From assembly GCA_016790075.1 (NCBI GenBank), contig JAEUPP010000038.1:97729-161728 (forward strand): a stretch of 64,000 nucleotides of DNA, written 5' to 3'. Below are positions 27,016-53,418 of this stretch, piece after piece. The notes beneath the pieces are model-generated. The model had not been told where the DNA came from. It made no database searches and saw only the letters and a list, made by a program, of their open reading frames with translations. The position numbers and the translations under genes are program-made. Positions within the stretch are counted from its first letter, which is position 1, and every line of letters starts with the position of its first letter. Origin of the DNA: Rhodanobacteraceae bacterium. Lineage in GTDB: Bacteria; Pseudomonadota; Gammaproteobacteria; Xanthomonadales; Rhodanobacteraceae.

Positions 27016-27996
27016 TCAGTCAAAGCCAGCCCGAAAAAGCACGTCGCTCAGGGAAACGTAGATCGACGCAAACTGCGTGGCGGGTGTGCCGAACCCCATG
27101 TTGCTGTAGTAAAGGTATTTCCGCGTTCCCATGGCATTGGCTTGCGCAAGGAAATCTGGTGCCGAGTTGGCCACGCCCAATGCTTCGTAGTAGAAACGGT
27201 CGGAGCGTGCGTTGTTTTTCACGTACAGGGATCTGCTGGCGAGTGAGGGAGAATTGAAGATCAGGTCTCCACTGTAGCGATAGCCCAAGCGGCCTTGCGT
27301 GCCCGCCTGCGAGAGAAATGCAGTCACATCCGGCGATGTGTTGCGGGTTTCGTACTGAAACGTCTCACTGACGGCGCTGTTCTTCACGAACAGCGACGAG
27401 AATACGAAGCTGCCGCCGACGGCTGGAAATCCGACATTTCCCATGAAGGCGTAGCCTTGCGCTCCCTGCGTGTTCACTTGAGTCAGGAAATCTGCCTCAG
27501 TCAAAGCTGTCGGCAGCTCACGATAGGCAAAGGTATCGTTGCCGCTGTAATTGACGAGCAGGGAATCGCTCACGCTGTAGTCGCCGAGGTAGAGGAATCC
27601 GGCCGCACCTTGGGTATTGAGCTGGGTGACTAGCGCCGCGGCTGATGCAGGTCTTGCGATCGACTGATAGGTAGCAGTCACATTGGACGAAACCGCACGC
27701 CCATAGATAGAGACGGTGCTCGAGAATACGTAGTTGCCGCCGTACAAGAAGCGCTGGGCGCCTTCGGAGTTGGCCTGATTGATCAGCCCTGCGACAGTTG
27801 GTTCGTAGGGCAACACCCGATAGTCATAGGTGCTGTCTTGCAGAGGGACGTGATTGGTCAGTGATTGGGCTTGGGCGATAGTCGCAAAAAAGGTCAATGC
27901 CAACGATACGGCGCATGACCGGATGATGCCTCGCCCTGAACATACTGGGCTTGCCACTTCGTAAGCTCTTTTGCCCAACGATCCAAATTCTTTCAC
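27016..27996 (-). CDS. Exported protein with five ~50-residue repeats
   Basis: Unrecognised 326-residue protein. Start choice: a GTG at 27996 preceded by AGAGGA; a strong AAAGGAG upstream serves only a four-codon ATG frame (ATGAAGTGGTAG), so the true start, or a sequence error, is open. A hydrophobic signal (SCAVSLALTFFATIAQAQ) follows an unusually long n-region. The rest is made of five imperfect repeats, each about FLxQxNxxGxxGYxYxG, then a variable strand, then S-L-[YF]-V-K-N. It ends VLFRAGFD, the short C-terminal motif shared with other exported proteins here. Presumed surface or extracellular, function unknown. Confidence 0.65.
   Translation of the reverse strand: MKEFGSLGKRAYEVASPVCSGRGIIRSCAVSLALTFFATIAQAQSLTNHVPLQDSTYDYRVLPYEPTVAGLINQANSEGAQRFLYGGNYVFSSTVSIYGRAVSSNVTATYQSIARPASAAALVTQLNTQGAAGFLYLGDYSVSDSLLVNYSGNDTFAYRELPTALTEADFLTQVNTQGAQGYAFMGNVGFPAVGGSFVFSSLFVKNSAVSETFQYETRNTSPDVTAFLSQAGTQGRLGYRYSGDLIFNSPSLASRSLYVKNNARSDRFYYEALGVANSAPDFLAQANAMGTRKYLYYSNMGFGTPATQFASIYVSLSDVLFRAGFD
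27030..27790 (-). repeat. Five tandem ~150-base protein-coding repeats
   Basis: Repeat units begin at the codons for LINQANSEG, LVTQLNTQG, FLTQVNTQG, FLSQAGTQG and FLAQANAMG. They are related at protein level but diverged at DNA level, so they are old duplications. Confidence 0.75.
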
Positions 27997-28199
27997 TGCG
28001 AGATCCTCTACCACTTCATCGAATGCACTCCTTTCTGGAGAGCGAGCCGGGATGGTACCCAAAGGCACTGCAGCAATCGCCACCGCTTGGTAACGGATCG
28101 ATAACGAACCGGATTCCGCGATGCTCTTTGCAGCGCAAGAAAGGGTGTCGCAGCGCACGCGGCCATCTCGAAGCTGTCATTGTAGCCGTGCCAGTTCTT

Positions 28200-28239
28200 A
28201 AACCCGGAAAGGCCGCCAGAAACTGGAATTCTGGCGGCC
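28200..28239 (-). terminator. Hairpin terminator after the first delta-60-type gene
   Basis: A perfect 11-bp stem (28211-28221 with 28229-28239, GGCCGCCAGAA/TTCTGGCGGCC) lies just past the minus-strand stop at 28272. The following bases on the minus strand are TTTCCGGGTTT, a weak T tract. A diverged version of the same element follows the tandem copy at about 30161-30190. Confidence 0.5.
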
Positions 28240-28271
28240 CCTGCACCATGGTTGGCTGGAGCTGGGTTCAA

Positions 28272-29732
28272 TCAATACTCCAGCCCATCGGTGAACAGGC
28301 CGTCGCCCTTCAGGCGCGCGATCGAGTAGTCGAAATCCTGGACTCCGCCGGGAAGATTCTGCGCCCAGAGGCGTGCGCCGGCCAGCAGTATGCGGCCGTG
28401 ATCCAGCGTCAGCCCGGCGCTTTGGTGATTCGTCGGTTGTCCTGAGCCAGCGTTCGGGAAGGTGATCAGGCTGATGGACGAACTGCCACCGCCGAAACCG
28501 GTCGCAAACTGGGTGTCGGGTTGCCCGGAGGCCGATAGCTGCACTACCCATTGCACGCGGGCCGGGTCTGCGGCCAGGGGCTGCGCCGAGGTCGTACCCG
28601 CGATCAGTATGCGCCCGTCGCTGTGCACCGCCATGTCGCTCAGCTGCAGGTCGCTGAGTATGGAATTGTATATATTGACTCCGCTGCCGAAGCCGGCAAC
28701 ATAGCTGCCGTTCGGGTTGATGCGGGTAACCAGGTAGTTGTTGCTGATATTGCCCGATACATTGCGCTGCACTTCTCCCGCGATCAGGATATTGCCGTCC
28801 GGGGTTGCCGCAAGTGAACGGGCGCGGTCTTCGTTGTCGCCGCCCAGGTTGTATCCGATGGTGCGCTTGCTCTGGATGCGTTGTGATCCCGGACAGGCAG
28901 CTGTCGAGGGGCAGAACGTCGAGTCGTCGGCTCCGTTCAGCGCGCTGATCTTCGCGATAGCGAAATCAGTGCCGGATTCGTCGACTGCGAAGCCGGCGAT
29001 ATACAAGGAGTTGCCAAGCAGGAGGATAGCCTGCGCGCCATCGGGATCGCCTCCGGGCGTGTTGTCGTCGAGGTCGAATGCGATGGTGCGGCGTCCACTG
29101 CCGGCGAAGGTACTCAGCGGCGTGGCATCCGCGCTGGCAAGTTTCATCACGAGAAAGTCGTAGTCGTTAGTGCTGAATTGCACCTGCCCGGCCACATAGA
29201 TCTGGCCTGCGCCGTCGGTCGTCACGGCAGAAAGCGTGTCGGTGCCGCTGGCCACGACATCGATCGGGATGCTGCGGCAGCCGCTGGACGAAATATTGGT
29301 GTCCGGGAAACCACTCAGGTTGTAGCGGCAGACCACCGGGTCGTAATCGAACAGCGTGCCACCGGGTTTGTTGCCGTAGCCGACGACCACGATGCGGTTG
29401 ACTGCATCCAAAGTGACGCCAGTTACTACCCGTAGCGGTGCGGTGCGTGCGATCTTGCCGCTGACGCCAAACGAGGTATCGAGCGAGCCGTCGGGTTTGA
29501 AGGCAGCCATGCCGACGGCACCCCCGTCGACATAGCCGACCACGATATAGCGGCCGCTACGTGGATCGACGACGACGCGATGCGCGAAATCGCCCTTGAC
29601 CGTTGTGATGTCAAAAGCAACTGCCTGCAAACCGTCGCCGCTAAAACTCGAGTCCGTATCGCCCTCGCGGGCTGAGGCACTGGCGCAAACTGCCAGCAGC
29701 AAGGCTGCGCAGAAGGTGTAAGTCAGTTTCAT
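28272..29732 (-). CDS. Exported delta-60 repeat-type beta-propeller protein (copy 1)
   Basis: The 486-residue product has a signal peptide (MKLTYTFCAALLLAVCASASA) and then repeats of the delta-60 type seen in secreted proteobacterial proteins: GDTDSSFSGDG, DPRSGRYIVVGYVD, PDGSLDTSFG, PDGNILIAGEV, SDGRILIAG. They probably form a propeller. Cysteines are few and paired. It ends DGLFTDGLEY, a C-terminal motif shared with its tandem paralogue and others nearby. AGGGGAG lies at good distance from the ATG. Function is unknown. Confidence 0.8.
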   Translation of the reverse strand: MKLTYTFCAALLLAVCASASAREGDTDSSFSGDGLQAVAFDITTVKGDFAHRVVVDPRSGRYIVVGYVDGGAVGMAAFKPDGSLDTSFGVSGKIARTAPLRVVTGVTLDAVNRIVVVGYGNKPGGTLFDYDPVVCRYNLSGFPDTNISSSGCRSIPIDVVASGTDTLSAVTTDGAGQIYVAGQVQFSTNDYDFLVMKLASADATPLSTFAGSGRRTIAFDLDDNTPGGDPDGAQAILLLGNSLYIAGFAVDESGTDFAIAKISALNGADDSTFCPSTAACPGSQRIQSKRTIGYNLGGDNEDRARSLAATPDGNILIAGEVQRNVSGNISNNYLVTRINPNGSYVAGFGSGVNIYNSILSDLQLSDMAVHSDGRILIAGTTSAQPLAADPARVQWVVQLSASGQPDTQFATGFGGGSSSISLITFPNAGSGQPTNHQSAGLTLDHGRILLAGARLWAQNLPGGVQDFDYSIARLKGDGLFTDGLEY

Positions 29733-30219
29733 GAGACAGCTCCCCTGTATTCCGTCGTATTGTGCTGCTGTTGAAACCGTAATTCACGCAGAATGGTGCG
29801 AAACCCTGACAGGGTTGATCAGACTGCATTGATCGCTCAGCTTGCAGCGGTCAGTCGCCACAACAGCGAGTTCTGTGCCAAATGCAGCAGGGCACGAGGT
29901 AGCGGCAGCAACGGCCGCGCGGTCGCGGCCGGCACGTTCAATCGGCGCAAGGTCGGCTGTACCTCTCGGCACACGTCGCCGGGTGCAGTGCGGCCGGCAG
30001 AAACCGGCCGGTCCTGCATCAGGGACGCGGTGGCGAGCGCGTTTTCCGGCAGCGGGAACATCATGTGCGTGTATTCATTCCAGCTGATCTCAACAAACAA
30101 GAAGCGGACGCTCGAGGCGAGACTCCGCAGGCCGGGCTGTGCGCTCCTTCACCGGCCACGGCCACCAGAAACGCCGATTCCGGCGGTCCCGGGCATCTGC
30201 GGATTGGAGCCAGGGATTC
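29733..30219. other. Gap between the two delta-60-type genes
   Basis: 487 bases. It holds the promoter of copy 1 and the diverged terminator of copy 2. A short minus-strand open frame (29837-30100, with an inner ATG ATG) was seen but has no convincing ribosome-binding site and matches nothing I know. GC-rich hairpins (29912-29931; 29992-30009) are ordinary for this composition. Confidence 0.4.
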
Positions 30220-31680
30220 CTAGTATTCCAGCCCGTCGCTAAACAGGCTGTCGCCCTTCAGGCGCACGAGCGCGTAGTCATAGTCCCGCACTCCGCCAGC
30301 CAGATTCTGGGCCCAGAGCCTGGCTCCGGCCAGCAGAATACGGCCGTGGTCGAGGGTGATTCTTCCGCTCTCGTGGTTCGTCGGCTGTCCCGACCCTGCA
30401 TTCGGGAAGGTGATCAGGGCGACGGACGAGCTGCCACCGCCGAAGGCGGTTGCAAACTGGTTGTCAGGCTGGCCGGAAGCCGACAGTTGCACGACCCATT
30501 GCAAGCGGACCGGGTCTGTGGCCAGAGGCTGCGAGGACGACGTACCCGCTATCAGGATGCGGCCGTCGCTTTGTACGGCGATGTCCGTCAGAAGAAGGTC
30601 GGAAAAAATTGAATTGTATATACTTGAACCGCTGCCGAAGCCGCTGGCTGGACTTCCGTTGGGGGCAATCCGGGCTATCAGATAGTTGTTGCTGACCGCG
30701 CCGGATACCGAGCGCTCGACCTCACCGGCGATCAGGATATTGCCCTCGGGCGTTGCCGCCAGCGCGCGTGCGCGGTCCTGGTTGTCGCCTCCCAGGTTAT
30801 ACCCGATCGTACGTCGGCCCTGGGTGCGCTGCGATCCCGGACAGATCAGCGTACTCGAACAGAAAGACGTGTCTTCTGCTCCGTTCAGTGCACTGATTTT
30901 CGCGATGGCGAAGTCGTTGCCAGCTTCATCGGCGGCGTAACCGGCGATGTAAAGTGAACTGCCAACCAGAAGTATCGCTTCGGCGCCGTCAACATCTCCG
31001 CCGGGCTGGCTCAGGTCCAGGTCAAACTCGATGTAGCGCCGGCCAGTGCCAGCGAACGTACTCAGCGGCGCCGCGTCGGGACTCGCGAGCTTCATCACGA
31101 GGAAGTCGTAGTCGTTTGTACTGATCTGCACTTGTCCGGCGACATAAATCTGGCCAGCGCCATCGGTGGTGACCGCGGAGAGCGTGTCAGAGCCATTGGC
31201 CAGCGCATCGACCGGGATGCTGCGGCAGCCGCTGGGCGAGATGCCAGCATCCGGAAATCCGCCGAGGTCATATCGGCACACCACAGGATCGAAGTCGAGT
31301 GAAGTCCCGCCTGGCTTGCGGCCGTAGCCGATCACGACGATACGACCAACCACATCCAATGTGACATCGGTAACGGCCTGGAACGGAGCGCCGCGGGCAA
31401 TCTTGCCGCTTGCTCCGAACGAAGTATCTGGGGTGCCATCGGGCTTGAATGCCGCCATGCCGACAGCGCCGTTATCGAGATGGCCGACCAGAATATAGCG
31501 GCCGGTACGCGGATCGACGACGACTCGCCGGCCGAAGTCGCTCTTGGCGGTCGTGATGTCGAAGGCGACCGTCTGCAGACCGTCTCCGCTGAAGCGTGAA
31601 TCCGTATCGCCTTCCCGGGCAGCGGCGCCGGTCGCGGCCAATATCAGGCTTGCAGCACAGAGGTAGTGAGTGATGGTCAT
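30220..31680 (-). CDS. Exported delta-60 repeat-type beta-propeller protein (copy 2)
   Basis: Tandem paralogue of the gene at 28272-29732, with the same length of 486 residues and most positions identical by eye (for example REGDTDSxFSGDGLQ near the N-terminus of both). The ATG at 31680 gives a signal peptide (MTITHYLCAASLILAATGAAA); an upstream in-frame start at 31764 would disrupt it. It ends DSLFSDGLEY. Both copies have kept an open frame and the terminal motif, suggesting both are used. Function is unknown. Confidence 0.8.
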   Translation of the reverse strand: MTITHYLCAASLILAATGAAAREGDTDSRFSGDGLQTVAFDITTAKSDFGRRVVVDPRTGRYILVGHLDNGAVGMAAFKPDGTPDTSFGASGKIARGAPFQAVTDVTLDVVGRIVVIGYGRKPGGTSLDFDPVVCRYDLGGFPDAGISPSGCRSIPVDALANGSDTLSAVTTDGAGQIYVAGQVQISTNDYDFLVMKLASPDAAPLSTFAGTGRRYIEFDLDLSQPGGDVDGAEAILLVGSSLYIAGYAADEAGNDFAIAKISALNGAEDTSFCSSTLICPGSQRTQGRRTIGYNLGGDNQDRARALAATPEGNILIAGEVERSVSGAVSNNYLIARIAPNGSPASGFGSGSSIYNSIFSDLLLTDIAVQSDGRILIAGTSSSQPLATDPVRLQWVVQLSASGQPDNQFATAFGGGSSSVALITFPNAGSGQPTNHESGRITLDHGRILLAGARLWAQNLAGGVRDYDYALVRLKGDSLFSDGLEY

Positions 31681-31798
31681 GCGGTATTTCCCGGTGCAGC
31701 AAGTTCGGTTGCTGCTTCCGGGATGAACTAACGTTAACGAGCGCGCGATAGTGACATTCGCCACGTTTGTGTCGGATTAGCGGTTACAGCTGGATAGG

Positions 31799-31837
31799 CC
31801 AAAAAAAACGACCGGCCTGAGCCGGTCGTTTTTTTAT
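31799..31837 (-). terminator. Strong terminator after the S8 protease gene
   Basis: A perfect 10-bp stem (31807-31816 with 31821-31830, loop CTGA) is flanked by eight A residues on one side and seven T residues on the other. Read on the minus strand it ends in eight T residues, which suits the protease gene that stops at 31875. It would also work on the plus strand. Confidence 0.92.
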
Positions 31838-31874
31838 TGCCGTGGCGCTCTGTCGAGCACCCCGCTGTCTGCAC

Positions 31875-34800
31875 TTACGGCGTGAAGCTGCCCGTCAGGC
31901 TGGCACCCGAATAGGCGGCGTAACCGTTGAGCATCACGTAGTAAGTCCCCGCCTGCGCGGTCGTGATGTTGCAGGTCTCGTTGTTACCGCCCAGGAACGG
32001 ACGGCAGTCGTAGCTGCTCAGGGTCGGCGCGGAACCGAACTTGACATACATGTCCGCATCACCCGTGCCACCGCTCAGGACGAACTTGAGGTTGGTCGCA
32101 CCGGCCGGCACAGCCAAGGTGAAGGTCTGGGTCGCGTTGAGCGCACCCGACAGACCCGTGCGCGGCACACCGTTCTGCAGAGCGCTGCCGCCGCCGCCGG
32201 TGGTGTAGCTGCCGGTCAGGCTGGCGCCCGAGAACGTGGCATAGGCACGTACCAGCACGTGGTAGGTACCGGCCTGGGCCGTGGCGATGTTGCAGGTTTC
32301 GGCATTGGTCGAACCATCCGACTTGCAGTCATAGGTCGTCGTCGTCGGCGCGGAACCGAACTTCACATACAGGTCCGCATCACCCGTGCCACCGCTGGTG
32401 ACGAACTTCAGACCGGTTGCACCCGCTGGCACCACCATGGTGTAGGCCAGGTTCACACCCGTTGCTGCGGCGAGTCCGGTCTTGGCCACACCGTTCTGCA
32501 GCACCGTATCCGTCGGCGGCGCGGTCACCGTGACCGAGCTCGACTTGGTGTTGCTCGCACCACCGTTGTCGGTCACGGTCAGGGTGACCGTATAGGTGCC
32601 GGCGGCTGTATAGGTCTTGCTCGGATTGGTCGCGGTCGAGGTGGTGCTGTCGCCGAAGTTCCAGCTGCGCGAAGCAATGGTGCCGTCGGAATCGGTCGAG
32701 GTGTCGGTGAAGTTCGCGGTCAGGCCGCTGACACTGGAGGTGAAGTTCGCCACCGGTGCCACATTGCCCGGACCGCTGCTGACCGTGACCGAGGAGGTCT
32801 TGGTATTGGCCGCACCCGCGTTGTCCGTCACCGTCAGCGTGACCGTATAGGTACCGGCCGCGGCGTAGGTCTTGGTGGGATTGGTTGCGGTCGAGGTGGA
32901 GCCGTCGCCGAAACTCCAGCTGCGCGAGGCGATGGTGCCGTCGCTGTCGGTCGAGGAGTCGGTGAAGTTGACCGTAAGGCCGCTGGTTGTGGTGCTGAAA
33001 TTCGCCACTGGCGGTGCGTTGCCGCCGCCGCCGAAGTTGCCGGTTGCGGCCAGCGCGTACTTCTGCGGGCCGGTCGGCACGTTGATGCCACGTACACGCA
33101 CCGTATACGTGCCCGCGGCCGGATTGGCGAAGCTGATGCGGTGCACGTTGTTGCGGTTGTCGTAATTGGTCGTCGTCGTGCTCTGGCTGGGGTTGGCGTT
33201 GGTGACGCTGACGCCGGCCGGCAGCTTCTGTGTCCACACATCGCCGTTGGGCGCGACGACTTCCAGTCGCAGCGCATTGACCAGCGCCGGGTTGGCGCCG
33301 ACCGAAGCGGCGGCGTCAGTCCAGGTCAGTGCAATGTTCAGCGGCGTGCCGGCCGTCACCGTCAAGGTGTGGTTGTCCTGGCCGCCGGTCGACAGGCCAG
33401 TGGCGGCATCGTGGATGTACAGGCGGTTGGTATCGCCGTTGAAGTACAGCGAGTCGTCCAGCAGTACGCGGCCCCAGCCTTGGGACTGACCCGGCGACGT
33501 GCCTGCACCCGTGCCGGTCATCGGCATGGCGCCAGCGATAAGTATCGACTTGATCAGCGCGCCCGAGGGATTCGCGATCGCATTGGCCGCGACCTTCTGG
33601 CCGGTGGGATAGAAACCGCGCTGCAGGTATTCGCGCACGAGCGCAGCGAGGCCGGCGGCGGTCGGCGTAGCCATCGAGGTGCCGCTCATCGTGGCGGTGC
33701 CGCAGGCGTTGCGTCCGGCGGAAACGATGCTCGAACCCTGTGCCGTAATGTCCGGCTTGGTGCGACTGTCGTTGGTCGGGCCACGCGAGGAGAAGCTCGC
33801 CATGGCGTTGGCCGCGGTGCCGCGGCTGGTTGCGCCGACGGTGATGACGTTCTTCGCGTTGCCCGGGCTGCCGACGTTATAGCCGGCGGGAGCGATGCTG
33901 GCGTCATTGCCTGCAGCAAACAGCAGCACCAGGTCGTTCCTGTCGCGCGTGACATTGTCGGCGTCGCGCGACTGCGAGTCGTAAGTCACCGTACAGCCGG
34001 CAATATAGTTGCCGAACTGGTCTACGCAGCCGCCGCCCCAGGAGTTGCTGTGCAGGCGCGCACCGTTGGTATAGGCCGTGTTGGCCGCGTGATACGGGTT
34101 GCCGCCCTGACTGTTGAGGTAGGCCAGGTCAGAGCCGGTCTCCTGCATCACCAGCTTGGCGCCGGGGGCCGTGCCATCGAGATCTGTATGTCCGCCCGGG
34201 GTGGTGAAGTTGGTGCAGTCGACGGGGGTAGCCGGATTCTGGCCGAGGATGGAGCCAGCGACATGGGTGCCGTGACCGTGCGGGTCGGTCGGCGTATTGC
34301 CGGTGAGGCCGGACCACTTGTAATAGGCGATGACCTTGCGCGCGGCATTGTTCGGCGCGGCGATGGCCGCACAGCTCGCACCCGTGGTGCAGTTGCTCAC
34401 CGGCGGTGCCTGCGCAGCATCGTTGAAGGCGCAGTTGGCGATATGCAGACCGGTATCGAGTTCGCCGATGATCTGGCCGCAACCATAGAGGCCGCGGTCG
34501 AAGACCGGGCGCAGTGGCGACGGGCTGTTGACGTTGCTCTGATGCAGCCAGTCAGCCTGCGAATTCATCAGGCGCATGGGCCAGCGGAAGCCGATGGCAG
34601 CGACATTGGGGTCGGCGGCCAGTTGTTCCACGGCGGCGCGTAGCGTGGCGCGCTCAAAGCGGGCAACCACGCGGGTATCCGTGCCGGCTGTGATCGTGTT
34701 GACGAAACTCAGCCCCGGCGCGCTCATGACTGCTGATTCGACGCTGGCCCGGTCACCGGCGCTGTGCATGCTGACCACGAGCTCGGTTACCCCGGCGCGC

Positions 34801-35261
34801 TCGGCAATATTCTGGCCCTTGATTTCGTTGGCCAGGTTCAGGTCGACCTTGAAGGCCGGCAGGAAAGGTCCGCTCCAGAGCTGGCCTTCGATCGGGCTGA
34901 TGCGTGCCCCGTTGGACTTGGCGCGCACGATATAGGCGTAGTGAGGCGCATAGCCCAGGATGTGATAACTCGCCTCGACGGCGGCGCGGCGCTGATCGGT
35001 AATCGGGCCGTCGAACTTGATCAGGCGCAGCGGCGAGTTCTTGAACGAATCCAGCTTGGCCAGTGCGGCGAGATCCTGATTGGCAAGCGTAATGGCGCCG
35101 GAGCAGACGTTCTGTTCGGCACTGGAGAACGAGACCATGCAACGCTCGGAAGTGTCGTTGCGCGAGTTGTCGGAACCACCAACGGTAGTACGGCTGTTGT
35201 CGGTAGCCATTACTGACGCCGACAGCGCAATACCAATACCGATAAACAAAGATGTACGCAT
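31875..35261 (-). CDS. Secreted S8 (subtilisin-like) serine protease with PKD and PPC domains
   Basis: A 1128-residue exported endopeptidase. After a signal peptide (MRTSLFIGIGIALSASVMA) comes a propeptide of about 240 residues, then the catalytic domain with Asp in GELDTGLH, His in HGHGTHVAG and Ser in GTSMATP. After it lie a jelly-roll-like segment (about 590-730), two PKD domains (SFGDGS/NFGDST, TAAGTYTVTLTVTD), and two bacterial pre-peptidase C-terminal domains (GGTGDADLYVKFG, GGTGDADMYVKFG) that are normally removed on maturation. It ends SLTGSFTP without the FxxGF motif of its neighbours. AAGGAAA lies before the ATG. Type II secretion is likely by analogy. Confidence 0.95.
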   Translation of the reverse strand: MRTSLFIGIGIALSASVMATDNSRTTVGGSDNSRNDTSERCMVSFSSAEQNVCSGAITLANQDLAALAKLDSFKNSPLRLIKFDGPITDQRRAAVEASYHILGYAPHYAYIVRAKSNGARISPIEGQLWSGPFLPAFKVDLNLANEIKGQNIAERAGVTELVVSMHSAGDRASVESAVMSAPGLSFVNTITAGTDTRVVARFERATLRAAVEQLAADPNVAAIGFRWPMRLMNSQADWLHQSNVNSPSPLRPVFDRGLYGCGQIIGELDTGLHIANCAFNDAAQAPPVSNCTTGASCAAIAAPNNAARKVIAYYKWSGLTGNTPTDPHGHGTHVAGSILGQNPATPVDCTNFTTPGGHTDLDGTAPGAKLVMQETGSDLAYLNSQGGNPYHAANTAYTNGARLHSNSWGGGCVDQFGNYIAGCTVTYDSQSRDADNVTRDRNDLVLLFAAGNDASIAPAGYNVGSPGNAKNVITVGATSRGTAANAMASFSSRGPTNDSRTKPDITAQGSSIVSAGRNACGTATMSGTSMATPTAAGLAALVREYLQRGFYPTGQKVAANAIANPSGALIKSILIAGAMPMTGTGAGTSPGQSQGWGRVLLDDSLYFNGDTNRLYIHDAATGLSTGGQDNHTLTVTAGTPLNIALTWTDAAASVGANPALVNALRLEVVAPNGDVWTQKLPAGVSVTNANPSQSTTTTNYDNRNNVHRISFANPAAGTYTVRVRGINVPTGPQKYALAATGNFGGGGNAPPVANFSTTTSGLTVNFTDSSTDSDGTIASRSWSFGDGSTSTATNPTKTYAAAGTYTVTLTVTDNAGAANTKTSSVTVSSGPGNVAPVANFTSSVSGLTANFTDTSTDSDGTIASRSWNFGDSTTSTATNPSKTYTAAGTYTVTLTVTDNGGASNTKSSSVTVTAPPTDTVLQNGVAKTGLAAATGVNLAYTMVVPAGATGLKFVTSGGTGDADLYVKFGSAPTTTTYDCKSDGSTNAETCNIATAQAGTYHVLVRAYATFSGASLTGSYTTGGGGSALQNGVPRTGLSGALNATQTFTLAVPAGATNLKFVLSGGTGDADMYVKFGSAPTLSSYDCRPFLGGNNETCNITTAQAGTYYVMLNGYAAYSGASLTGSFTP
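31878..32510 (-). repeat. Tandem PPC-domain repeats within the protease gene
   Basis: Two units of about 310 bases each encode LQNGVxxTGL to SLTGSxT, joined by a Gly-rich linker. DNA identity is high in parts, for example around the GTGDAD codons, so recombination between them is possible. Confidence 0.8.
32520..33020 (-). repeat. Tandem PKD-domain repeats within the protease gene
   Basis: Two units of about 245 bases each encode VANF to SSVTV, with the shared core STDSDGTIASRSW and GTYTVTLTVTDN. Near-identical DNA between units suggests recent duplication or gene conversion. Confidence 0.8.
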
Positions 35262-36455: not shown

Positions 36456-36554
36456 GTTCTGGCTCCGGGTTGAGGTGATCCCAGGCTAGTGCTGTGAGGG
36501 TGGCTGCTGCCATCACCTGATCGGGGGATTTTCGGGTGAGCCTTGCTGTCGCGT

Positions 36555-44959: not shown

Positions 44960-45088
44960 CGGCAAAGAGTAGCGCGGCGCGCAGGGCTTGGCACGGCATG
45001 CCCGTCAACGCGGAATCACCTTTGCGCAACTGCGCCGATGGTGCAGACTGCGCCGCCACGCGTATGCGATAGCCGCACCGGAGCCGCC

Positions 45089-46126: not shown

Positions 46127-46175
46127 TCAACGTCAGTTCGGCCAATCCGGCTACGCGCCGGCAACAGGAGTGGAA

Positions 46176-46529: not shown

Positions 46530-46538
46530 GAGCAGCGT

Positions 46539-47768
46539 GTGACCGAGTACGTCATTGAATGCCTCACGTTCCTGCTGCGCTGGCTGCACGTGGTCGCGGC
46601 CATCGCCTGGATTGGCGAATCGTTCTACTTCGTCGCGCTGGACCGTGGACTCAAGCCGCCGCAGCAAGCGGAGCCTAATCTTTACGGCGAATCCTGGTCG
46701 GTACACGGCGGAGGTTTTTACCGCAAGCAGAAGTACCTGCCGGCACCGCAGCAGTTGCCGGCGGAGGTGCATTGGTCAAAATGGAAATCGTATACAACCT
46801 GGATGTCTGGCCTGGCCCTGCTGACCACGGTCTATCTGTTTTCGCCGCAGGTGTATCTGATTGATCCGGCCGTCGCGGCCTGGACGCCTGCTCAGGCGGT
46901 GCTGCTCGCGCTCGCATTCCCGCTGCTGGGCTGGCTCTGCTACGACGGCCTGTGCCGCCTGCTGCAGGATCGCGACGACATGCTGGGCGTCGCCATCGCC
47001 GGGCTGGTGCTGCTGCTCTGTTATCTGACAATGCAGGTATTTGCGGCGCGCGCGGCCTTTCTGCTGACTGGTGCCGTGCTCGGCAGCATCATGTCGGCCA
47101 ATGTGTTCTTCGTGATCATTCCGGGGCAGAAGCAGATCATCGCCGCACTCGCGCGTGGTGCGACGCCGGACCCCGAACCCGGCCGGCGCGGCAAGCAGCG
47201 TTCTGTACACAACACCTATTTCACCTTGCCGGTCGTGTTCGCCATGCTGAGCACGCATTACGCCACCGCATACGCGCATGCGGACGGCTGGCTGGTGCTC
47301 GCGGCCTTCATGGCCGCCGGCGCGCTGATCCGCCAGTTCTTCGTGCTCTGGCATGGCGGCGGCAGGGCCTGGTGGCTGCTGCTGGCCGGGGCAGCGCTGC
47401 TGCTTGCGGTATTCGCCTGGATACGGCCACAGCCCAAAGCAGCTGCTGCCACTACCGCTGCGTTGGTCACCGCAACGGGCAAGCCGCTGGCCGAAGCGGC
47501 GCCGCCGGATACACCGGCGATACAGGCGGTGCTGGCGCGCCATTGCCTGCAGTGCCACTCCGCCACGCCCAGCCTGATGGGCGCAGCGCCCAAGGGCATG
47601 ATGTTCGACACCCCGCAGCAGATCGAATCGCAGGCGGCTCTGATCGAACGCCAGGTCAGCGTGCTGCGGGTGATGCCGCCCGGTAACCTGACCCAGATGA
47701 GCGAGGCGGAGCGCGAGGCGATTGCGCGTTGGGCCGCCCAGAAGTCACAGCCTGCGCCGGGTCAGTAA
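46539..47768 (+). CDS. puuD: PuuD, membrane urate hydroxylase with c-type haem domain
   Basis: Converts urate to 5-hydroxyisourate with electrons passing to a cytochrome. The 409-residue product has about eight TM helices, starting with LLRWLHVVAAIAWIGESF and carrying the family HGGGFYRKQK and WSKWKSYTTWMSG segments, then a C-terminal cytochrome c domain with CLQCH near residue 335 and a Met ligand candidate in VMPPGN. The GTG at 46539 follows hiuH by 9 bases, so a GTG start in a coupled operon is chosen. Confidence 0.92.
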   Translation: MTEYVIECLTFLLRWLHVVAAIAWIGESFYFVALDRGLKPPQQAEPNLYGESWSVHGGGFYRKQKYLPAPQQLPAEVHWSKWKSYTTWMSGLALLTTVYLFSPQVYLIDPAVAAWTPAQAVLLALAFPLLGWLCYDGLCRLLQDRDDMLGVAIAGLVLLLCYLTMQVFAARAAFLLTGAVLGSIMSANVFFVIIPGQKQIIAALARGATPDPEPGRRGKQRSVHNTYFTLPVVFAMLSTHYATAYAHADGWLVLAAFMAAGALIRQFFVLWHGGGRAWWLLLAGAALLLAVFAWIRPQPKAAAATTAALVTATGKPLAEAAPPDTPAIQAVLARHCLQCHSATPSLMGAAPKGMMFDTPQQIESQAALIERQVSVLRVMPPGNLTQMSEAEREAIARWAAQKSQPAPGQ

Positions 47769-48109
47769 CGTGATCACGCCCCAGGGCAACAGAGGTGGCC
47801 TATGTCCGTGATGCCAACGGTGTGGCATGCCACTACGGGCGCGTTGCACTCAGGCAAGATCGGCGCGACGATCACACGCACGGCACGGTGGAATGCGGTG
47901 CGAGGTGGAAGGGGCGTCAGAAGGATGGCGATGATTGCTGGAGTCATCGTGAATCGCGTCGCGTCCTCGCCGGTGCTGCCCTGGCATCTGCAGCCGTGCA
48001 CGAGGCCGCGTCGGACGGGGGACGGCGATCCCCTGGCGGACCCAATACACCGAGGGAAAGAACCCGACATGGGCTGACCGTAGGTGATTGCCACAGGAGC
48101 ATCGGTGCG
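47769..48109. other. Gap between puuD and the metalloprotease gene
   Basis: 341 bases. The metalloprotease frame is open upstream to 47795, but its residues there do not resemble the protein and no start has a good ribosome-binding site. No OHCU decarboxylase (the next step after HIU hydrolysis) was found. Confidence 0.45.
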
Positions 48110-49570
48110 ATGAACGAGCGGATCGTACGGCTGTTGCTGGTCATGCTGGTGGTCTGGAGCGTCGACGCGAATGCCAACTTGTGTGGGCTGGATAGCCTCA
48201 ACGACCGCTATCGCAGCGAGTCGCGGAACATCACCGGAGCGAGCTTCACGCCGCCGGATTACCTCGGCAGCGTGGCGGAATACAACGCGTGGATTCTCGC
48301 ATGCAACCGCAAGCGTGATTCTCATGGTGCGGCACTCGACAAGGGGATCGACCCGGGCAGCCCCGATGGCTTTGCGAGCAACTTGCCGGCGCGGATGGTG
48401 AAGGGCCGGATCGAGTATCTCGACGCGGTGGTCTCGCAACTCAAGTATGGCTATCGCTTGCACCGGGTAAATGGCGAGTGGGTTGTCACGATCGCGATCC
48501 GCCTGTTGTTTCCCGACCGTCCGATCAAGAACCGTCTGGACATTCCTGCCGAGCTGGCGGTACAGCTCGGTTTGATGACGGCTCCGGTCGGCGCAACCGG
48601 CACCCGTGACTGCGATGCCGGGCAGGAAGGGACGGCGCGGCTGCCGATCCGCACGGTGGTCAATCAGGGACGCCTGGTAACCTTCGACGGCTTCGGCTGC
48701 CGCCTCGAGCGCGACCGCCGGCTTGCCAATGGCGAAAAGTTGCTGGATCACTTCTATCTGTTCTGGAAACAGGCGATTGAAACGGCGTGGAGCCGACCTG
48801 GCTTCCGCATCGAGGTGGTGTTTCCCGATTACCCGTCGCCTTTGTTCCCTGCCCCTGCCGCCGGGGTGGCAACAGCCTTCGACAAGACCAACACGGAGTG
48901 GAAGATCCGTTTTTCGGACAACGCCGAGAAACGCACGACGTTTCAGCAGCTGCCATTCAAATGGGAGAACGCACCGATGGCGCTCGCGGGCGCCACTATC
49001 GCGCACGAAGCTGGTCATCTGCTGGGTCTGGACGACGAATACCGGGAGAACGATCGCGGCGCCAAGAACGCGTGGCGTGATTGTGCCGCGCACGGCGGCG
49101 CGGGCTACCTGATGTGCAGCCAGACTTTTGCTGACGACGGCACGCCGGACAACGATGTCGGTGGCATAGGTCATCCCGAAGCCGCCAAGGGGATCTACGC
49201 CTGGATCATCACGCGACGCTATGCGATTGGCGACACACCCGAATGTGCGGACGATGCCGACTGTGGCTTTGCGGACTATTGCGATCGCGGCGGCGCGCTT
49301 GCGCTGGCGAAGAATGTGTGCGCGCCCAGACTCGGCGTGTGCGAGGCCTGCGATCGCGACAACGAATGCGTGTCCGGGAAATGCACGCTGTTGCGCTGTG
49401 TTGCAGCCACCACTCTTGCGATTGGCGCGACCTGCTGTCGCAACCAGCAATGTGCGAGCAACAACTGCTCAAGCAAGGGGCAGTGCCAGTGCCGGCGCAA
49501 CGATGATTGTCCCAGCGGACAGAAATGCCGCGAGGGTTTCCTGGGAATAGGGTTGAATGAGTGCCGATGA
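48110..49570 (+). CDS. Exported zinc metalloprotease with cysteine-rich C-terminal domain
   Basis: A 486-residue product. It has a signal peptide (MNERIVRLLLVMLVVWSVDANA), an N-terminal region of about 260 residues without recognised homology, and HEAGHLLGLDDEYREN at residue 299, which combines HExxH with a downstream Asp/Glu of the gluzincin or M-family HExxHxxGxxD type. The C-terminal 110 residues are cysteine-rich (CDRGG, CEACDRDNEC, CCRNQQCASNNC, CRRNDDCPSGQKC) like Dickkopf-type or secreted disulfide modules. AGGAG lies 12 bases before the ATG, rather far. Presumed secreted protease; target unknown. Confidence 0.72.
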   Translation: MNERIVRLLLVMLVVWSVDANANLCGLDSLNDRYRSESRNITGASFTPPDYLGSVAEYNAWILACNRKRDSHGAALDKGIDPGSPDGFASNLPARMVKGRIEYLDAVVSQLKYGYRLHRVNGEWVVTIAIRLLFPDRPIKNRLDIPAELAVQLGLMTAPVGATGTRDCDAGQEGTARLPIRTVVNQGRLVTFDGFGCRLERDRRLANGEKLLDHFYLFWKQAIETAWSRPGFRIEVVFPDYPSPLFPAPAAGVATAFDKTNTEWKIRFSDNAEKRTTFQQLPFKWENAPMALAGATIAHEAGHLLGLDDEYRENDRGAKNAWRDCAAHGGAGYLMCSQTFADDGTPDNDVGGIGHPEAAKGIYAWIITRRYAIGDTPECADDADCGFADYCDRGGALALAKNVCAPRLGVCEACDRDNECVSGKCTLLRCVAATTLAIGATCCRNQQCASNNCSSKGQCQCRRNDDCPSGQKCREGFLGIGLNECR

Positions 49571-49587
49571 GATGTGACGGAAGTTTC

Positions 49588-49608
49588 GGGCCTTGGCTCT
49601 CAAGGCCC
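49588..49608. terminator. Hairpin between convergent genes
   Basis: A perfect 8-bp stem (GGGCCTTG/CAAGGCCC, loop of 5) between the stop of the metalloprotease and the stop of the beta-helix gene. It lacks a T run on either strand, so it is only a possible shared transcript-end structure. Confidence 0.35.
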
Positions 49609-49632
49609 CGATGGCTTCGCGCGGTGCAGGAT

Positions 49633-51081
49633 CTAGACTCCCTGGAAGCCGTCAGTGAAGAGGCGGTCTGGCGCGTAGATGTCGGCGGGAATTGCCGTGC
49701 CTAGCTGCTCCCAGACATAACGGGTCAACGACGAAGCGGCGCAGAAACCCGTGGTAATGCCCGTCTCGGTGCACAGTGCGGTGCGAATGCGGTCTTCCTG
49801 TGGCCATGGCCAAAGTTCGGCAGCCGTGGGCTGATCAAAGCCCGGCTCGCCGTGCAAGCTGCCGGGTGCGCCCAGGCGCTTGAGCACGACCGCACCGACG
49901 CGGGTGGCGCCTGGGCCTGCGGTTGCGAGGGCTGAACCAGCCTCGATGCGGGGCAGCCAGCGCAGGCCCGAGGTGGCCGGGTTCATGCTCGGCTCGGTGC
50001 CGCAACTGGCCTGGAAGCAGATGTTGCCGCTGTGGGCGATAGCCTGGAAGTTGCCGCCGTTGATATCGGACAGCAGGGAATTGGTGGCGTTGAACAATCC
50101 GGCACCGTGATAGTCGTTGATGCCGCCGCTGCCGAGCTGGCCCAGCGTGATGTTGCGCAGGCTGCCCGCATGCGCGGCGCCATTGATGGTGAGGCCGAAA
50201 TCAGCCTTGAACACGATGCTGTCGCTGAGGCGGCTGTCGCTTGAGGCATTGCCTCCATCCCAGCCCACGCCGCTGTTCGCGACGTTCAGCACGATGGCCC
50301 CGGAATTGTGGATATGTGCCGAGGCCGGCCCGTTGCTCGGATGGTATAGCGCTGCCTCGAAGTAACCGCTAGGGCGGCTGTCGAGCAGCAGCAGGTTCTG
50401 GGTTAGTATATTTGTAGAGTTGTAAAGTGAAACAACCGCCTGCGGATTGCCCTGGGTATCGCTCCAGCCGTCCTCGTGTCGCGCGACCAGACGCCGCAGT
50501 ACCACGCGGTCAGCGTTGTAGACCAGCACGTTATAGCGGCCGCCGCGGCCGTAGGCGAAGGAATCCTCGACGAGAACGTATTGCGCACCAGGTGTTGCGT
50601 TGTTGGTACCTATGGCCAGCGAGACTGCATTGCCGGTCGCCGGGCCATTCGCGAAACCGCAGCGCAGAAACTTGAGGTAGCGACCGGTGACTGATTTCTG
50701 GGTCGCGCCGGTCCAGTCCAGCCCTTCGAACTGCAGGTAGTGATCACCCAGCGGGATCTCCAGCAGCGCCGTGATACGCACGCTGGCATCGATTTCTGCT
50801 TTCACGGTATTCCAGGCGCTGCTGCGACCGGCGACGAGGCCGTCAATGCGGTTGCCGTCGCCGGCATACGTGCCCGGCCTTACGATCACCGTATCGCCGC
50901 CCAGCGGCGACATCAGTGCGGCGGCGGCCCGTATCGTTTTCTTGGGTTGTGCCGCTGAACCGTTGCCGCTGTCGTCGGCGGCTCCCGCGCTGACGTAGTA
51001 GGTTGCGGCGTTACCCGCGACGGGCAGCAAAGCCAGACAAACCAGCGTCGGCAACAGCGCACGATAACGAGATGTAGGCAT
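49633..51081 (-). CDS. Exported right-handed beta-helix protein
   Basis: The 482-residue product starts at ATG 51081, giving a signal peptide (RALLPTLVCLALLPVAGNA). It begins TYYVSAGAADDSGNGSAAQP, typical of pectate-lyase-like parallel beta-helix proteins, and continues with repeated helical coils (NILTQNLLLLDS, LRNITLGQLG). No catalytic Arg/Asp cluster of a known lyase could be confirmed. It ends DRLFTDGFQGV, the shared C-terminal motif. The longer upstream open frame is a read-through of the gap. Confidence 0.75.
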   Translation of the reverse strand: MPTSRYRALLPTLVCLALLPVAGNAATYYVSAGAADDSGNGSAAQPKKTIRAAAALMSPLGGDTVIVRPGTYAGDGNRIDGLVAGRSSAWNTVKAEIDASVRITALLEIPLGDHYLQFEGLDWTGATQKSVTGRYLKFLRCGFANGPATGNAVSLAIGTNNATPGAQYVLVEDSFAYGRGGRYNVLVYNADRVVLRRLVARHEDGWSDTQGNPQAVVSLYNSTNILTQNLLLLDSRPSGYFEAALYHPSNGPASAHIHNSGAIVLNVANSGVGWDGGNASSDSRLSDSIVFKADFGLTINGAAHAGSLRNITLGQLGSGGINDYHGAGLFNATNSLLSDINGGNFQAIAHSGNICFQASCGTEPSMNPATSGLRWLPRIEAGSALATAGPGATRVGAVVLKRLGAPGSLHGEPGFDQPTAAELWPWPQEDRIRTALCTETGITTGFCAASSLTRYVWEQLGTAIPADIYAPDRLFTDGFQGV

Positions 51082-51226
51082 GAAGAAATGACCACAAGGA
51101 AGTTGCTGCGTTGAAACCCTGCCGCGCGCAGGCGGGTATTTTTCCCGCGTAGCCGGGCGCCAGCTGTTGCGAACGATAAGCGAAGCGGGGTTATGCGTCG
51201 CGATCAACGTTGCAGGTGGGCATGCT

Positions 51227-51817
51227 TCACCGTAGCGGCTGACAAGCCGCTGCATCCGGTTCTGCGGCCAGCGTACCCGCATAGCGCAGCACCAGCCCAA
51301 GCAAAGGTAGACGGAATTCGACCTCGAACACATAACCTCCGTCGACGATGCGCTTGCCCGCTCGTGTGTCCAGCAGCGCAAGCGGGATGGGCAGGCCATG
51401 CCAACGGGCGCCGCGCAGGCGCCAGAGCCAGTCACCGCCGGTGGTATCGACTCCCAGGTCCAGCCGCAGCGGCCCGGTGCTTTCGTACCAGCCACCGCTG
51501 GGGAAGTGTCCGTAGGGAATGAACCGGGAAATCATCTCGGCCCCGGTCTCAAAACGCCGGCACCACAGCAGCGAGTCATGGGTGTGTGTGATACGCACCC
51601 GAAAGCCGCAGTCGCTGTGGCCTGCCGGCAGGCCTAGCCGGCGCGCAAGGCGCCGGCCGATCAGTCCGGCGGCACCACGGCCGTGGTTGATCGCAATACG
51701 CCCGTGCAGTACGCCACCATGGCTATGCAGGGTCTGCAGCAAAGGATGCAATTGGTAAAAAGCATCACCAAACCAGCGTGTAACGATGGTGGTGTCGGGT
51801 TGTCCGGATGGGGCCAA
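51227..51817 (-). CDS. DUF4166 family protein
   Basis: A 196-residue protein that begins near WFGDAFYQLHPLLQTLHSHGG and contains GRGAAGLIGRRLARRLGLP, both typical of DUF4166. No signal peptide, no assigned function. The start is a TTG at 51817, with AGGCACAGGCC before it; no ATG fits. It lies 9 bases after the small membrane protein gene on the same strand, so the two are probably one transcript. Confidence 0.7.
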   Translation of the reverse strand: MAPSGQPDTTIVTRWFGDAFYQLHPLLQTLHSHGGVLHGRIAINHGRGAAGLIGRRLARRLGLPAGHSDCGFRVRITHTHDSLLWCRRFETGAEMISRFIPYGHFPSGGWYESTGPLRLDLGVDTTGGDWLWRLRGARWHGLPIPLALLDTRAGKRIVDGGYVFEVEFRLPLLGLVLRYAGTLAAEPDAAACQPLR

Positions 51818-51826
51818 GGCCTGTGC

Positions 51827-52165
51827 CTATCGTCCGCCCTGTGAATGCAGCAGACGCGTCAGGCGCAGGGCAAGAGCGAACAGCAAGACAGCGAGCAGAG
51901 CCGGAACCGCGGCTGCCAGCCATTCGCTTGCGCCGTTGGCGACCCAGACCACAAGGCCGGTTACGACGAGACAGCAAGCGAGCAGCGCCAGTGTCAGTGA
52001 AACGCCGGCTACGAGGCTGATGGAAAGCAGCGAAATGCCGGTACCCGGTGCGGCCGGCGGTGTTTCGCGCTGGCGGCGGTTAAGCCGGCGATGCCGGCGT
52101 AGCGCCGTGGGCTGCGCCAGTCTGCTGCCGGTGGTAGATAAAGCCAAAGCCTTGGAGGCGCTCAT
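51827..52165 (-). CDS. Small membrane protein
   Basis: A 112-residue product with two TM helices (about 46-71 and 82-101), a positively charged N-terminus (ALRRHRRLNRRQRE) and a short C-terminal tail. I do not recognise a family. The ribosome-binding site is weak. Upstream of the DUF4166 gene with 9 bases between. Confidence 0.55.
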   Translation of the reverse strand: MSASKALALSTTGSRLAQPTALRRHRRLNRRQRETPPAAPGTGISLLSISLVAGVSLTLALLACCLVVTGLVVWVANGASEWLAAAVPALLAVLLFALALRLTRLLHSQGGR

Positions 52166-52519
52166 AGTAGGTACGCGTGTTTCCGCGATCGTGTGAACTA
52201 CCTGTTAGGACGCAGCAGAGGCTGATTCCCCCCATGTAGCTGCGTTTTTCCGGATGAGGCCGTCCATCAGAAAACCAAGCGCGACCAAAGTCGCACTGTG
52301 CCGCGCCTGGGTTTGACCTTGTTGACGACAGACCGTAAAACGTAGCGTGCTGTCCCGGACTCTCTGGACGCGTGCACCCTGGTTTTGCAGTGCCGGCCTG
52401 GTTGAGTTCGGCACTTGACATGTGCTTGCGCTGCGAGTCCTTGACAGCGTCGTCGGGGCAATCGCGGAGCGGGTGCCGGAATGCCGAAACTTGTCCAGGT
52501 CTTTCAAAGGAGCAGAGCT
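52166..52519. other. Gap between divergent small membrane protein genes
   Basis: 354 bases. It should hold promoters for both sides. No gene or clear promoter element recognised; the plus-strand frame crossing it is not supported by a ribosome-binding site until 52520. Confidence 0.4.
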
Positions 52520-52909
52520 GTGGCGATCAGGGGAGCCGGCGGCACGCCGGGTGGTATTGGCGAATTTCTGCTTGGTTTTGCGCTGGCCGTAGCTGGTGGA
52601 TGGCTGCTCAGCAATCAGGTCATCGTCAGCGGCGGCAGCTGGAACATCTGGGGCTACAACACCTTTGGCCTTTCATTGCTGCCGTTCGTGCTCGGTGTCG
52701 CCATGCTGTTCTTCAACGGGCGCTCGGTGCTGGGTTGGTTGCTGACGATGGGGGGGCTGGTCATTGTTTTCGCCGGTGTCATCGTAAACCTGCGTGTGTA
52801 TTTCGTTGCGACCAGCCTGTTCAATACCTTGCTTATTCTGGTACTGCTGTTTGGCGGCATAGGCCTGCTGGCGCGCTCGCTGCGCTCGCACGGACCTGCC
52901 GAGTCATGA
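52520..52909 (+). CDS. Four-helix membrane protein
   Basis: A GTG at 52520 follows AAAGGAG at good spacing and is preferred to the ATG at 52481. The 129-residue product has four TM helices (about 12-32, 48-64, 70-92, 97-118) and no motif I know. Its stop overlaps the next start by four bases (ATGA), so the two proteins are coupled, and it may anchor or support the haem-motif protein that follows. Confidence 0.65.
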   Translation: MAIRGAGGTPGGIGEFLLGFALAVAGGWLLSNQVIVSGGSWNIWGYNTFGLSLLPFVLGVAMLFFNGRSVLGWLLTMGGLVIVFAGVIVNLRVYFVATSLFNTLLILVLLFGGIGLLARSLRSHGPAES

Positions 52910-53418
52910 AAGTGCAGGTGCGGTGGCTGCTCGCAGTGGCCGGGTTGGCTGCCCCGGCGTTGCTGCAGGCCTGGCCGGTCGAGGAAGCGCTTTTCCCGCG
53001 CCTGCCGTTTGCTGATCAATGCGACAGCATTGCGGCGATTCCGCTGCGCCAGCACGTGAATTACAACCTTGACATACAGCCGATCTGGAGCACGCGCTGT
53101 GCGAACTGCCACGTCGACTGGGGCAAGTTCCCTTCGGCTGATCTGGATCTGAATCCGCCGAATTCCTGGTTTTTTCTCTACAACGAGCCGAGTAGCCAGG
53201 ACAACAGCCTGATCCGTGTCGTACCGAACCGGCCGCTGCAAAGTCTGCTGTTTACCAAGCTCAATTGCGAGGTCAACGACGTGGGCGTGCGCATGCCGCG
53301 GGATCGGCAGCCGATTCCGATTGCCGAACAGGCATTGGTGCACGACTGGATTCTGGCCGGCGCGCCCGAAGTCGACGACGACACCATTTTCCGCGCTCGC
53401 TTTGAAACGCGCGGCTGA
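52906..53418 (+). CDS. Exported haem-binding-motif protein
   Basis: A 170-residue protein with a signal peptide (VRWLLAVAGLAAPALLQA) and a CxxCH motif (CANCHVDWG) that would bind one c-type haem. The following region (NPPNSWFFLY, GVRMPRDRQP) offers Met as a possible second ligand. The domain resembles the planctomycete-type or DUF1588-like cytochrome wording but is too short to call. It ends DTIFRARFETRG, a variant of the shared C-terminal motif. Coupled to the membrane protein gene upstream. Confidence 0.7.
   Translation: MKVQVRWLLAVAGLAAPALLQAWPVEEALFPRLPFADQCDSIAAIPLRQHVNYNLDIQPIWSTRCANCHVDWGKFPSADLDLNPPNSWFFLYNEPSSQDNSLIRVVPNRPLQSLLFTKLNCEVNDVGVRMPRDRQPIPIAEQALVHDWILAGAPEVDDDTIFRARFETRG

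What the first reader, a model, noticed from the sequence alone, without database searches (positions are those of the whole stretch)
27016..53418. Shared short C-terminal motif on five unrelated exported proteins
Five proteins with signal peptides or signal-like N-termini and unrelated domains carry a similar sequence at or near the C-terminus: VLFRAGFD (27016-27996), LFTDGLEY (28272), LFSDGLEY (30220), DRLFTDGFQGV (49633) and DTIFRARFETRG (52906). The consensus is about D-x-[L/I]-F-x-x-[G/R]-[F/L]-[D/E/Q]. The two delta-60 paralogues share ancestry, but the beta-helix, five-repeat and haem-motif proteins do not. A tag at or a few residues from the end suggests recognition by a sorting, processing or anchoring machine, comparable in logic to PEP-CTERM or type IX tags. 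I know of no described system for this motif.
Basis: partly seen in the sequence, partly recalled or inferred. Interest (0 to 1): 0.88.

Follow-up and report, generated by a model that had tools for sequence, protein, structure and literature searches.

The report
Nine-residue C-terminal export tag, T2SS-linked
Many bacteria of the order Lysobacterales end unrelated exported proteins with the same nine-residue tail, and genomes that use the tail nearly always carry a second type II secretion machine, which suggests that the tail is an address label for that machine.

Summary
All five window proteins carry the motif, and no other open frame of at least 60 residues in six frames does. The canonical form is D-x-[IL]-F-x-[DNS]-G-F-E-stop. 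Of 299 genomes of the order, 106 match, with up to 63 copies per genome; the reversed-pattern control never exceeds 2. Other orders of the class are at chance level. Tagged ORFs look exported (65 of 79, against 205 of 745 untagged) and fall in many unrelated families. Conservation stops nine residues from the end, with no transmembrane helix or basic tail. Tag presence tracks a second type II secretion system: in genomes at least 97% complete, 49 have both, 1 tag only, 7 system only, 152 neither. A genus with that system but almost no GFE tails partly uses FxDRFE, as the fifth window protein does. Best reading: a linear sorting tag for that second T2SS, in a field where substrates are said to share no common sequence. 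The link is correlative: few independent losses, one near-complete tagged genome without the system, and most genomes of that genus poorly tagged. I found no described tag that matches.

The parts
27016..28158 (-). five-repeat exported protein (longest ORF; the true start is probably further in, before the signal-peptide-like IIRSCAVSLALTFFATIAQAQ)
27019..27048 (-). tag SDVLFRAGFD at the very end
28272..29732 (-). delta-60 repeat protein with signal peptide
28275..28307 (-). tag variant GDGLFTDGLEY
30220..31764 (-). delta-60 repeat protein, paralogue of 28272-29732
30223..30255 (-). tag variant GDSLFSDGLEY
49633..51495 (-). beta-helix-like exported protein (longest ORF; signal-peptide-like MPTSRYRALLPTLVCLALLPVAGNA inside)
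49636..49668 (-). tag variant DRLFTDGFQGV (two extra residues)
52906..53418 (+). haem-motif exported protein, starting MKVQVRWLLAVAGLAAPALLQA
53380..53415 (+). tag variant DTIFRARFETRG (R for G, three extra residues)

Best explanation
The tail D-x-[IL]-F-x-[DNS]-G-F-E is a linear sorting tag. Tagged proteins enter the periplasm by an ordinary N-terminal signal peptide and fold. The exposed C-terminal nonapeptide (a hydrophobic pair, a polar-Gly turn, then Phe-Glu) is then bound by a second type II secretion system, here called T2SS-A (gspC-gspD-gspE, with gspF in many genomes, plus a separate gspG cluster), which takes them across the outer membrane. Shown: the tag, its conservation as a peptide, its enrichment on exported proteins, its restriction to this order, and its co-occurrence with T2SS-A at two unlinked loci. 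Inferred: that T2SS-A reads the tag, which component does so (GspC, GspD or the pseudopilus tip), and the turn structure.
For: Tag counts up to 63 and 66 per genome with controls of 0-2. Conservation confined to the last nine residues; synonymous codons and all three stop codons mixed. 65 of 79 tagged against 205 of 745 untagged ORFs signal-peptide-like. GspD-A against tag (at least 3): 88 both, 9 tag only, 27 A only, 175 neither of 299; at >=97% completeness 49/1/7/152; by genus 33/3/2/47. The unlinked pseudopilin GspG-A gives the same split in 27 genomes: present in 18, all GspD-A positive, 17 of them with at least 3 tags; absent in G097, in G019 and in the 7 other untagged genomes. Genus g31: FxDRFE tails in 6 of the 11 genomes re-searched with one mismatch; a related protein ends CGIFCDGFE in family f8 and CGIFCDRFE in g31. 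The only untagged genome of the 33 sampled in family f9, G019, has no GspD or GspG. Two of ten tagged proteins scanned resemble, far below the family cut-offs, the LapA-type M28 peptidases and the rhombosortase- or myxosortase-dependent M36 peptidases.
Against: Everything linking tag and T2SS-A is correlation. On a tree of 36 genomes there are only 4 independent pairs; the tag follows A in 3.4 of 4 on average, a few pairings had one pair going the opposite way, and the sign test is not significant (p 0.125-0.625). G097 (98% complete) has 7 genuine-looking tags but neither GspD-A nor GspG-A. In genus g31, 27 of 30 genomes have A but only 7 of 30 reach 3 tags, so A does not need the tag. In GlyGly-CTERM proteins T2SS export does not need the C-terminal motif (PMC13393428, passages). 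Exosortase also leans towards tagged genomes (20 of 36 against 8 of 34, p 0.008), and I tested too few other genes to know how many track the tag. No structure of a tagged protein could be made.
Confidence: 0.55

Rival explanations
1. The tag is a retention or attachment signal: cargo is exported by T2SS-A through other, structural signals, and the tail then holds it at the cell surface or is cut or modified there, as GlyGly-CTERM does with rhombosortase, but without a membrane helix.
For: Same co-occurrence data. The GlyGly-CTERM precedent: cargo with that motif replaced is still exported and released (PMC13393428, passages). Some tagged proteins carry 'choice-of-anchor' domains.
Against: No transmembrane helix or basic tail in 136 tails apart from 4 marginal hydrophobic windows; rhombosortase over cut-off in 3 of 70 genomes; no transferase found beside tags.
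Confidence: 0.22
2. The tag is read by some other, unidentified machine that happens to be inherited and lost together with T2SS-A.
For: Few independent losses; G097 has tags without A; exosortase and TIGR02999-type sigma genes also lean towards tagged genomes. Gene content was not profiled beyond seven families.
Against: Two unlinked T2SS-A loci track the tag; of 69 untagged-or-tagged contrasts in the 70-genome panel GspD-A misses 1 of 36 tagged genomes, exosortase misses 16 of 36.
Confidence: 0.18
3. The similarity is chance, a DNA-level element, or a remnant of common ancestry of the proteins.
For: Five loosely matched tails in one window would be weak evidence alone.
Against: Controls of 0-2 against up to 66 copies per genome; mixed codons and stops; unrelated domains; internal occurrences 3 in 358,044 residues.
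Confidence: 0.02

Closest known systems
GlyGly-CTERM / rhombosortase (with T2SS)
   Same: Short C-terminal motif on unrelated signal-peptide proteins that use a T2SS; an M36 peptidase family known from that system has a distant tagged relative here
   Different: GlyGly-CTERM is a Gly-rich stretch + transmembrane domain + basic tail cut by a rhomboid protease (PMC13393428, passages); here nine residues at the very end, no helix, no basic tail, and rhombosortase over cut-off in only 3 of 70 genomes
MYXO-CTERM / myxosortase and PEP-CTERM / exosortase
   Same: Dozens of tagged, otherwise unrelated exported proteins per genome
   Different: Tripartite tags with a transmembrane helix (MYXO-CTERM: start of an abstract in a search listing; PEP-CTERM: recalled). 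Exosortase-like genes in 20 of 36 tagged and 8 of 34 untagged panel genomes and none in the window's own genome. Myxosortase was not searched for
Type IX secretion C-terminal domains
   Same: C-terminal signal on proteins that first use a signal peptide, no transmembrane helix (recalled)
   Different: Type IX signals are folded domains of roughly 70-100 residues in Bacteroidota (recalled); here conservation stops nine residues from the end
Type II secretion signals, e.g. loop 3 of PelI
   Same: An exposed nine-residue region of PelI interacts with GspC and GspD and controls recruitment (PMC7949064, passages)
   Different: That is an internal loop of one protein pair; [quoted passage not shown] Here one shared terminal sequence on many families

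Membership tests
Tripartite C-terminal sorting tags (PEP-, GlyGly-, MYXO-CTERM) | Transmembrane helix after the signature motif | tested here: not met
   4 of 136 distinct tails have a 17-residue window of mean hydropathy >=1.6 in the last 45 residues; the motif itself is terminal
Tripartite C-terminal sorting tags (PEP-, GlyGly-, MYXO-CTERM) | Basic cluster at the C-terminus | tested here: not met
   K or R in the last four residues in 0 of 136 tails; three of those four positions are fixed by the selection [ILV]F..GFE-stop
PEP-CTERM / exosortase | Exosortase in the tagged genome | tested here: not met
   None in the window's own genome; in 20 of 36 tagged and 8 of 34 untagged panel genomes
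GlyGly-CTERM / rhombosortase | Rhombosortase in the tagged genome | tested here: not met
   Over the curated cut-off in 3 of 70 genomes: G013 and G053 (untagged) and G097 (tagged)
MYXO-CTERM / myxosortase | Myxosortase in the tagged genome | not tested
   no search made
Type IX secretion C-terminal domain | Conserved C-terminal domain of tens of residues | tested here: not met
   Positions -10 to -20 show no dominant residue in 57 ORFs
Type IX secretion C-terminal domain | Type IX machinery in the genome | not tested
   no search made
Type I secretion C-terminal signals | No N-terminal signal peptide | tested here: not met
   65 of 79 tagged ORFs have a signal-peptide-like N-terminus (home-made rule; 205 of 745 untagged also pass)
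Type II secretion substrates | N-terminal Sec or Tat signal peptide | tested here: met
   home-made rule; Sec and Tat not told apart
Type II secretion substrates | Genome encodes a T2SS | tested here: met
   Own genome: gspC, gspD, gspE at G000:C63 (Pfam) and gspG at G000:C9 (TIGR01710) for T2SS-A; a second gspD and gspG at C42. Neighbouring gspI/J/K/L/M were assigned by size, order and clustering only
Type II secretion substrates | Export abolished in a T2SS mutant | not testable with these tools
   needs an experiment

The most novel reading that the evidence does not exclude
One lineage of type II secretion systems selects much of its cargo by a shared nine-residue C-terminal address tag, so that its secretome can be read from sequence and a folded periplasmic protein could in principle be routed by adding the tail. 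The genus with FxDRFE tails would be a case of tag and reader changing together.
Probability: 0.45. Interest if true: 0.95.

Novelty: new variant of a known kind. Interest (0 to 1): 0.86.

Why it matters
[quoted passage not shown] A shared linear tag in one order, with a natural letter-swap variant and natural loss lineages, makes the question directly testable by adding or removing nine residues. It also gives a rule for predicting secreted or surface proteins in a little-studied group (Dokdonella, Tahibacter, Pseudofulvimonas, Marinicella, Wenzhouxiangella; names).

Tried and rejected
Co-located machine: 20-kb neighbourhoods of tags in tag-poor genomes and the 8-kb named loci gave no recurrent protease or transferase, only a recurrent ECF sigma/Ser-Thr kinase pair; a further 20 neighbourhoods were fetched but used only for the ORF counts. 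A homologue search for the delta-60 protein in genome contigs found none. Rhombosortase as the machine: rejected. Exosortase: not required, since the window's own genome has none, though it leans towards tagged genomes (20 of 36 against 8 of 34, p 0.008). Chance and DNA element: rejected. Genus g31, which has A but no GFE tag, at first looked like a refutation; it proved to be partly a G-to-R variant, but 23 of 30 g31 genomes still have fewer than 3 tags. The one named match outside the phylum (Lentisphaerota MAG, L136) ends a 37-residue frame and is taken as chance. The 19 Xcs-like and 5 divergent GspD genomes carry no tags.

Choices and biases. The thresholds (3 tags; bits per position for A-type) were set after seeing the data, and the tables were typed by hand into the script. 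The -9 Asp frequency is biased because 63 loci were fetched with Asp in the pattern; the unbiased figure is 29 of 57. In one search ORFs under 120 residues and loci under 7 kb were left out, and overlapping loci L163/L164 count two tagged proteins twice, so 65 of 79 is 63 of 77 distinct at most. The 13 extended tails include one protein counted twice. Sigma-factor counts were scored on at most 40 candidates per genome, so the large ones are lower bounds.
Full report
What was checked. Family scans show no shared domain apart from the delta-60 pair, which are 76% identical, and no NCBIfam or Pfam match covers the tails. In the window's own genome (G000, 5,624,045 bases) the strict tail F--GF[DE]-stop occurs 11 times, against 0 for the pattern read backwards. 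Nine of the 11 end open frames of 203 to at least 506 residues; two end frames of 94 and 60 residues and are doubtful. Of the nine, six were scanned against Pfam: lamin-tail domain, dihaem cytochrome c peroxidase, FG-GAP repeats, M12B reprolysin and Lcl_C in five, nothing in the sixth.

How widespread. Over 299 genomes of the order, the tail [ILVMF]F--GFE-stop matches in 106, with counts up to 63 per genome (G015) and a reversed control never above 2. Letting the glycine be G, R or S (and -4 be D, N, S or G) gives 119 of 299, up to 66 in one genome, control again at most 2. Across the class (274 genomes, including own and two others of the order) nine of 271 genomes of other orders have exactly one match each and none has two; the control rings once in six genomes (-4 restricted as above). 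An exact scan of genome contigs (one genome for each of 84,980 species; the window's own genome may be left out) for GAYNNNATCTTCNNNRAYGGCTTCGARTRR found 63 stretches. They come from Dokdonella, Tahibacter, Pseudofulvimonas, Marinicella, Wenzhouxiangella, a Pseudolysobacter MAG, MAGs and one isolate labelled Lysobacterales, Xanthomonadales, Lysobacteraceae or Rhodanobacteraceae, a MAG labelled Xanthomonas, MAGs labelled only Gammaproteobacteria, Proteobacteria or Pseudomonadota (nine stretches, not identified further), and one Lentisphaerota MAG whose match ends a 37-residue frame.

What it looks like. In 57 ORFs of at least 150 residues from the first searches, position -9 is D in 29, -7 is I, L or V in all 57 (the pattern allowed also M and F), -4 is D, N, S or H in 54, and -10 to -20 show no dominant residue; F, G and F at -6, -3 and -2 were fixed by the pattern. 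Synonymous codons and all three stop codons are mixed in 133 ORFs, so the peptide is what is kept. Four of 136 tails have even a marginal hydrophobic window, and none has K or R in the last four residues. With a home-made signal-peptide rule, 65 of 79 tagged and 205 of 745 untagged ORFs in loci of at least 7 kb look exported (Fisher p 1.5e-21; two tagged proteins are counted twice); inside proteins the motif occurs 3 times in 358,044 residues. Tails with 1-6 extra residues, like two of the window's, occur 13 times (12 distinct) in 1604 ORFs with 1 control hit, and 0 of 195 ORFs in sixteen loci from untagged genomes match.

The machine. The neighbourhood approach gave only a regulator (see noticed items). 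A test of the T2SS secretin GspD on 70 genomes showed that tagged genomes nearly always hold two full-length GspDs, while most untagged ones hold one. The extra one, called A here, sits in a gspC-gspD-gspE operon, followed in many genomes by a gspF-like gene and ftsE-ftsX-rpoH-like genes (gspF, ftsEX and rpoH named from recall of the sequences). In the own genome Pfam confirms T2SSC plus PDZ, GspD N0 plus secretin, and T2SSE; no gspF was seen next to gspE there. A tree of 60 GspDs separates A (22 rows, 99*), an Xcs-like pair and the Xps-like B group (36 rows, 100*) (the names Xps and Xcs are recalled, not tested against Xanthomonas records). An A-type profile run on the 299 genomes, joined to the tag counts (at least 3 tags; A called by bits per position, with 10 fragments counted in), gave 88 both, 9 tag only, 27 A only, 175 neither. 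For genomes at least 97% complete the numbers are 49, 1, 7 and 152; by genus 33, 3, 2 and 47. Eight of the nine tag-only genomes are drafts of 73-96% completeness; the ninth is G097 at 98%. The major pseudopilin GspG, at another locus, separates the same way in 27 genomes: a high-scoring type (164-191 bits) in 18, all GspD-A positive, 17 of them with at least 3 tags; only the lower type in G097 and seven untagged genomes; nothing in G019. Around it lie recurrent families in the order expected for gspI-J-K-L-M (assigned by size, order and recall), so A looks like a complete second T2SS.

The exception that became partial evidence. Genus g31 has A but almost no GFE tails. Allowing one mismatch showed FxDRFE tails (FADRFE, FRDRFE, FQDRFE and the like) in 6 of 11 g31 genomes (G037, G058, G084, G094, G099, G129), against controls of 0-3 per genome. 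With the wider pattern, 7 of 30 g31 genomes reach three tags. A related protein ends ...NVIQGLGWKLCGIFCDGFE in G171 (family f8) and ...NVIQGLGWHVCGIFCDRFE in G084 (g31). The window's fifth protein has the same R. Yet 23 of 30 g31 genomes stay under three tags, so A is kept without many recognisable tags.

Limits. All of this is co-occurrence. On the GspD-B tree of 36 genomes, A changes 4 times and the tag 5 times. In the four independent pairs the tag follows A in 3.4 on average, with one opposite pair in a few of the 200 pairings, and the sign test is not significant (p 0.125-0.625). G019, with no GspD or GspG and no tags, is a further case not on that tree. G097 keeps seven tags without A. 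Exosortase-like genes are in 20 of 36 tagged and 8 of 34 untagged panel genomes (p 0.008) and absent from the window's genome; rhombosortase exceeds its cut-off in 3 of 70. Other genes were not profiled. No structure could be predicted because the machine was full.

Known work. Searches for six literal forms of the motif found no paper. Searches for C-terminal sorting signals in this order and for linear or C-terminal T2SS signals found none on it, all in an open-licence library only. [quoted passage not shown] An exposed nine-residue loop of PelI that interacts with GspC and GspD is the nearest precedent (PMC7949064, passages). GlyGly-CTERM is a T2SS-linked but membrane-spanning tag, and constructs in which it was replaced were released to the medium (PMC13393428, passages), which keeps the retention rival alive. 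LapA of Legionella is T2SS-dependent by the title of PMC5904407 (listing only); the tagged M28 peptidase L096 matches the LapA model at 67 bits against a cut-off of 600. The myxosortase paper PMC11980579 was seen only as a listing with the start of its abstract.

Conclusion. A new C-terminal tag is firmly established as a sequence feature of one bacterial order; its reader is most likely the second T2SS, at a little better than even odds for the mechanism proposed.

Noticed in passing
L072, L079, L080, L084, L090, L101, L129: Tagged genes repeatedly sit beside, or in one apparent operon with, an ECF-type sigma factor and/or a Ser/Thr protein kinase (in L079 kinase-sigma-three tagged genes; kinase named from recall). 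TIGR02999-type sigma genes are more numerous in tagged than untagged panel genomes (median 20 against 6, p 2e-9).
   Followed up: partly
L062 (G006:C124): A tail with two tags in tandem, VFQDGFEGARTGVVFADGFE.
   Followed up: no
70-genome panel, e.g. G031, G091, G005: Exosortase-like proteins (PF09721, 30-41 bits) in 28 of 70 genomes; possibly a separate IPTL-type sorting system (recalled, not tested).
   Followed up: no
G019 (family f9): A 4.7 Mb, 100% complete genome with no GspD or GspG match and no tags, inside a family in which the other 32 sampled genomes all have at least 3 tags.
   Followed up: partly
L094:813-3761: A Marinicella protein similar over about its last 200 residues to the M36 peptidase families that carry MYXO-CTERM or GlyGly-CTERM elsewhere (77 and 51 bits, far below the cut-offs) ends in the GFE tag instead.
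   Followed up: no
window 31842-34643: A 933-residue open frame antisense to the subtilase gene 31875-35261; probably a shadow frame in GC-rich DNA.
   Followed up: no
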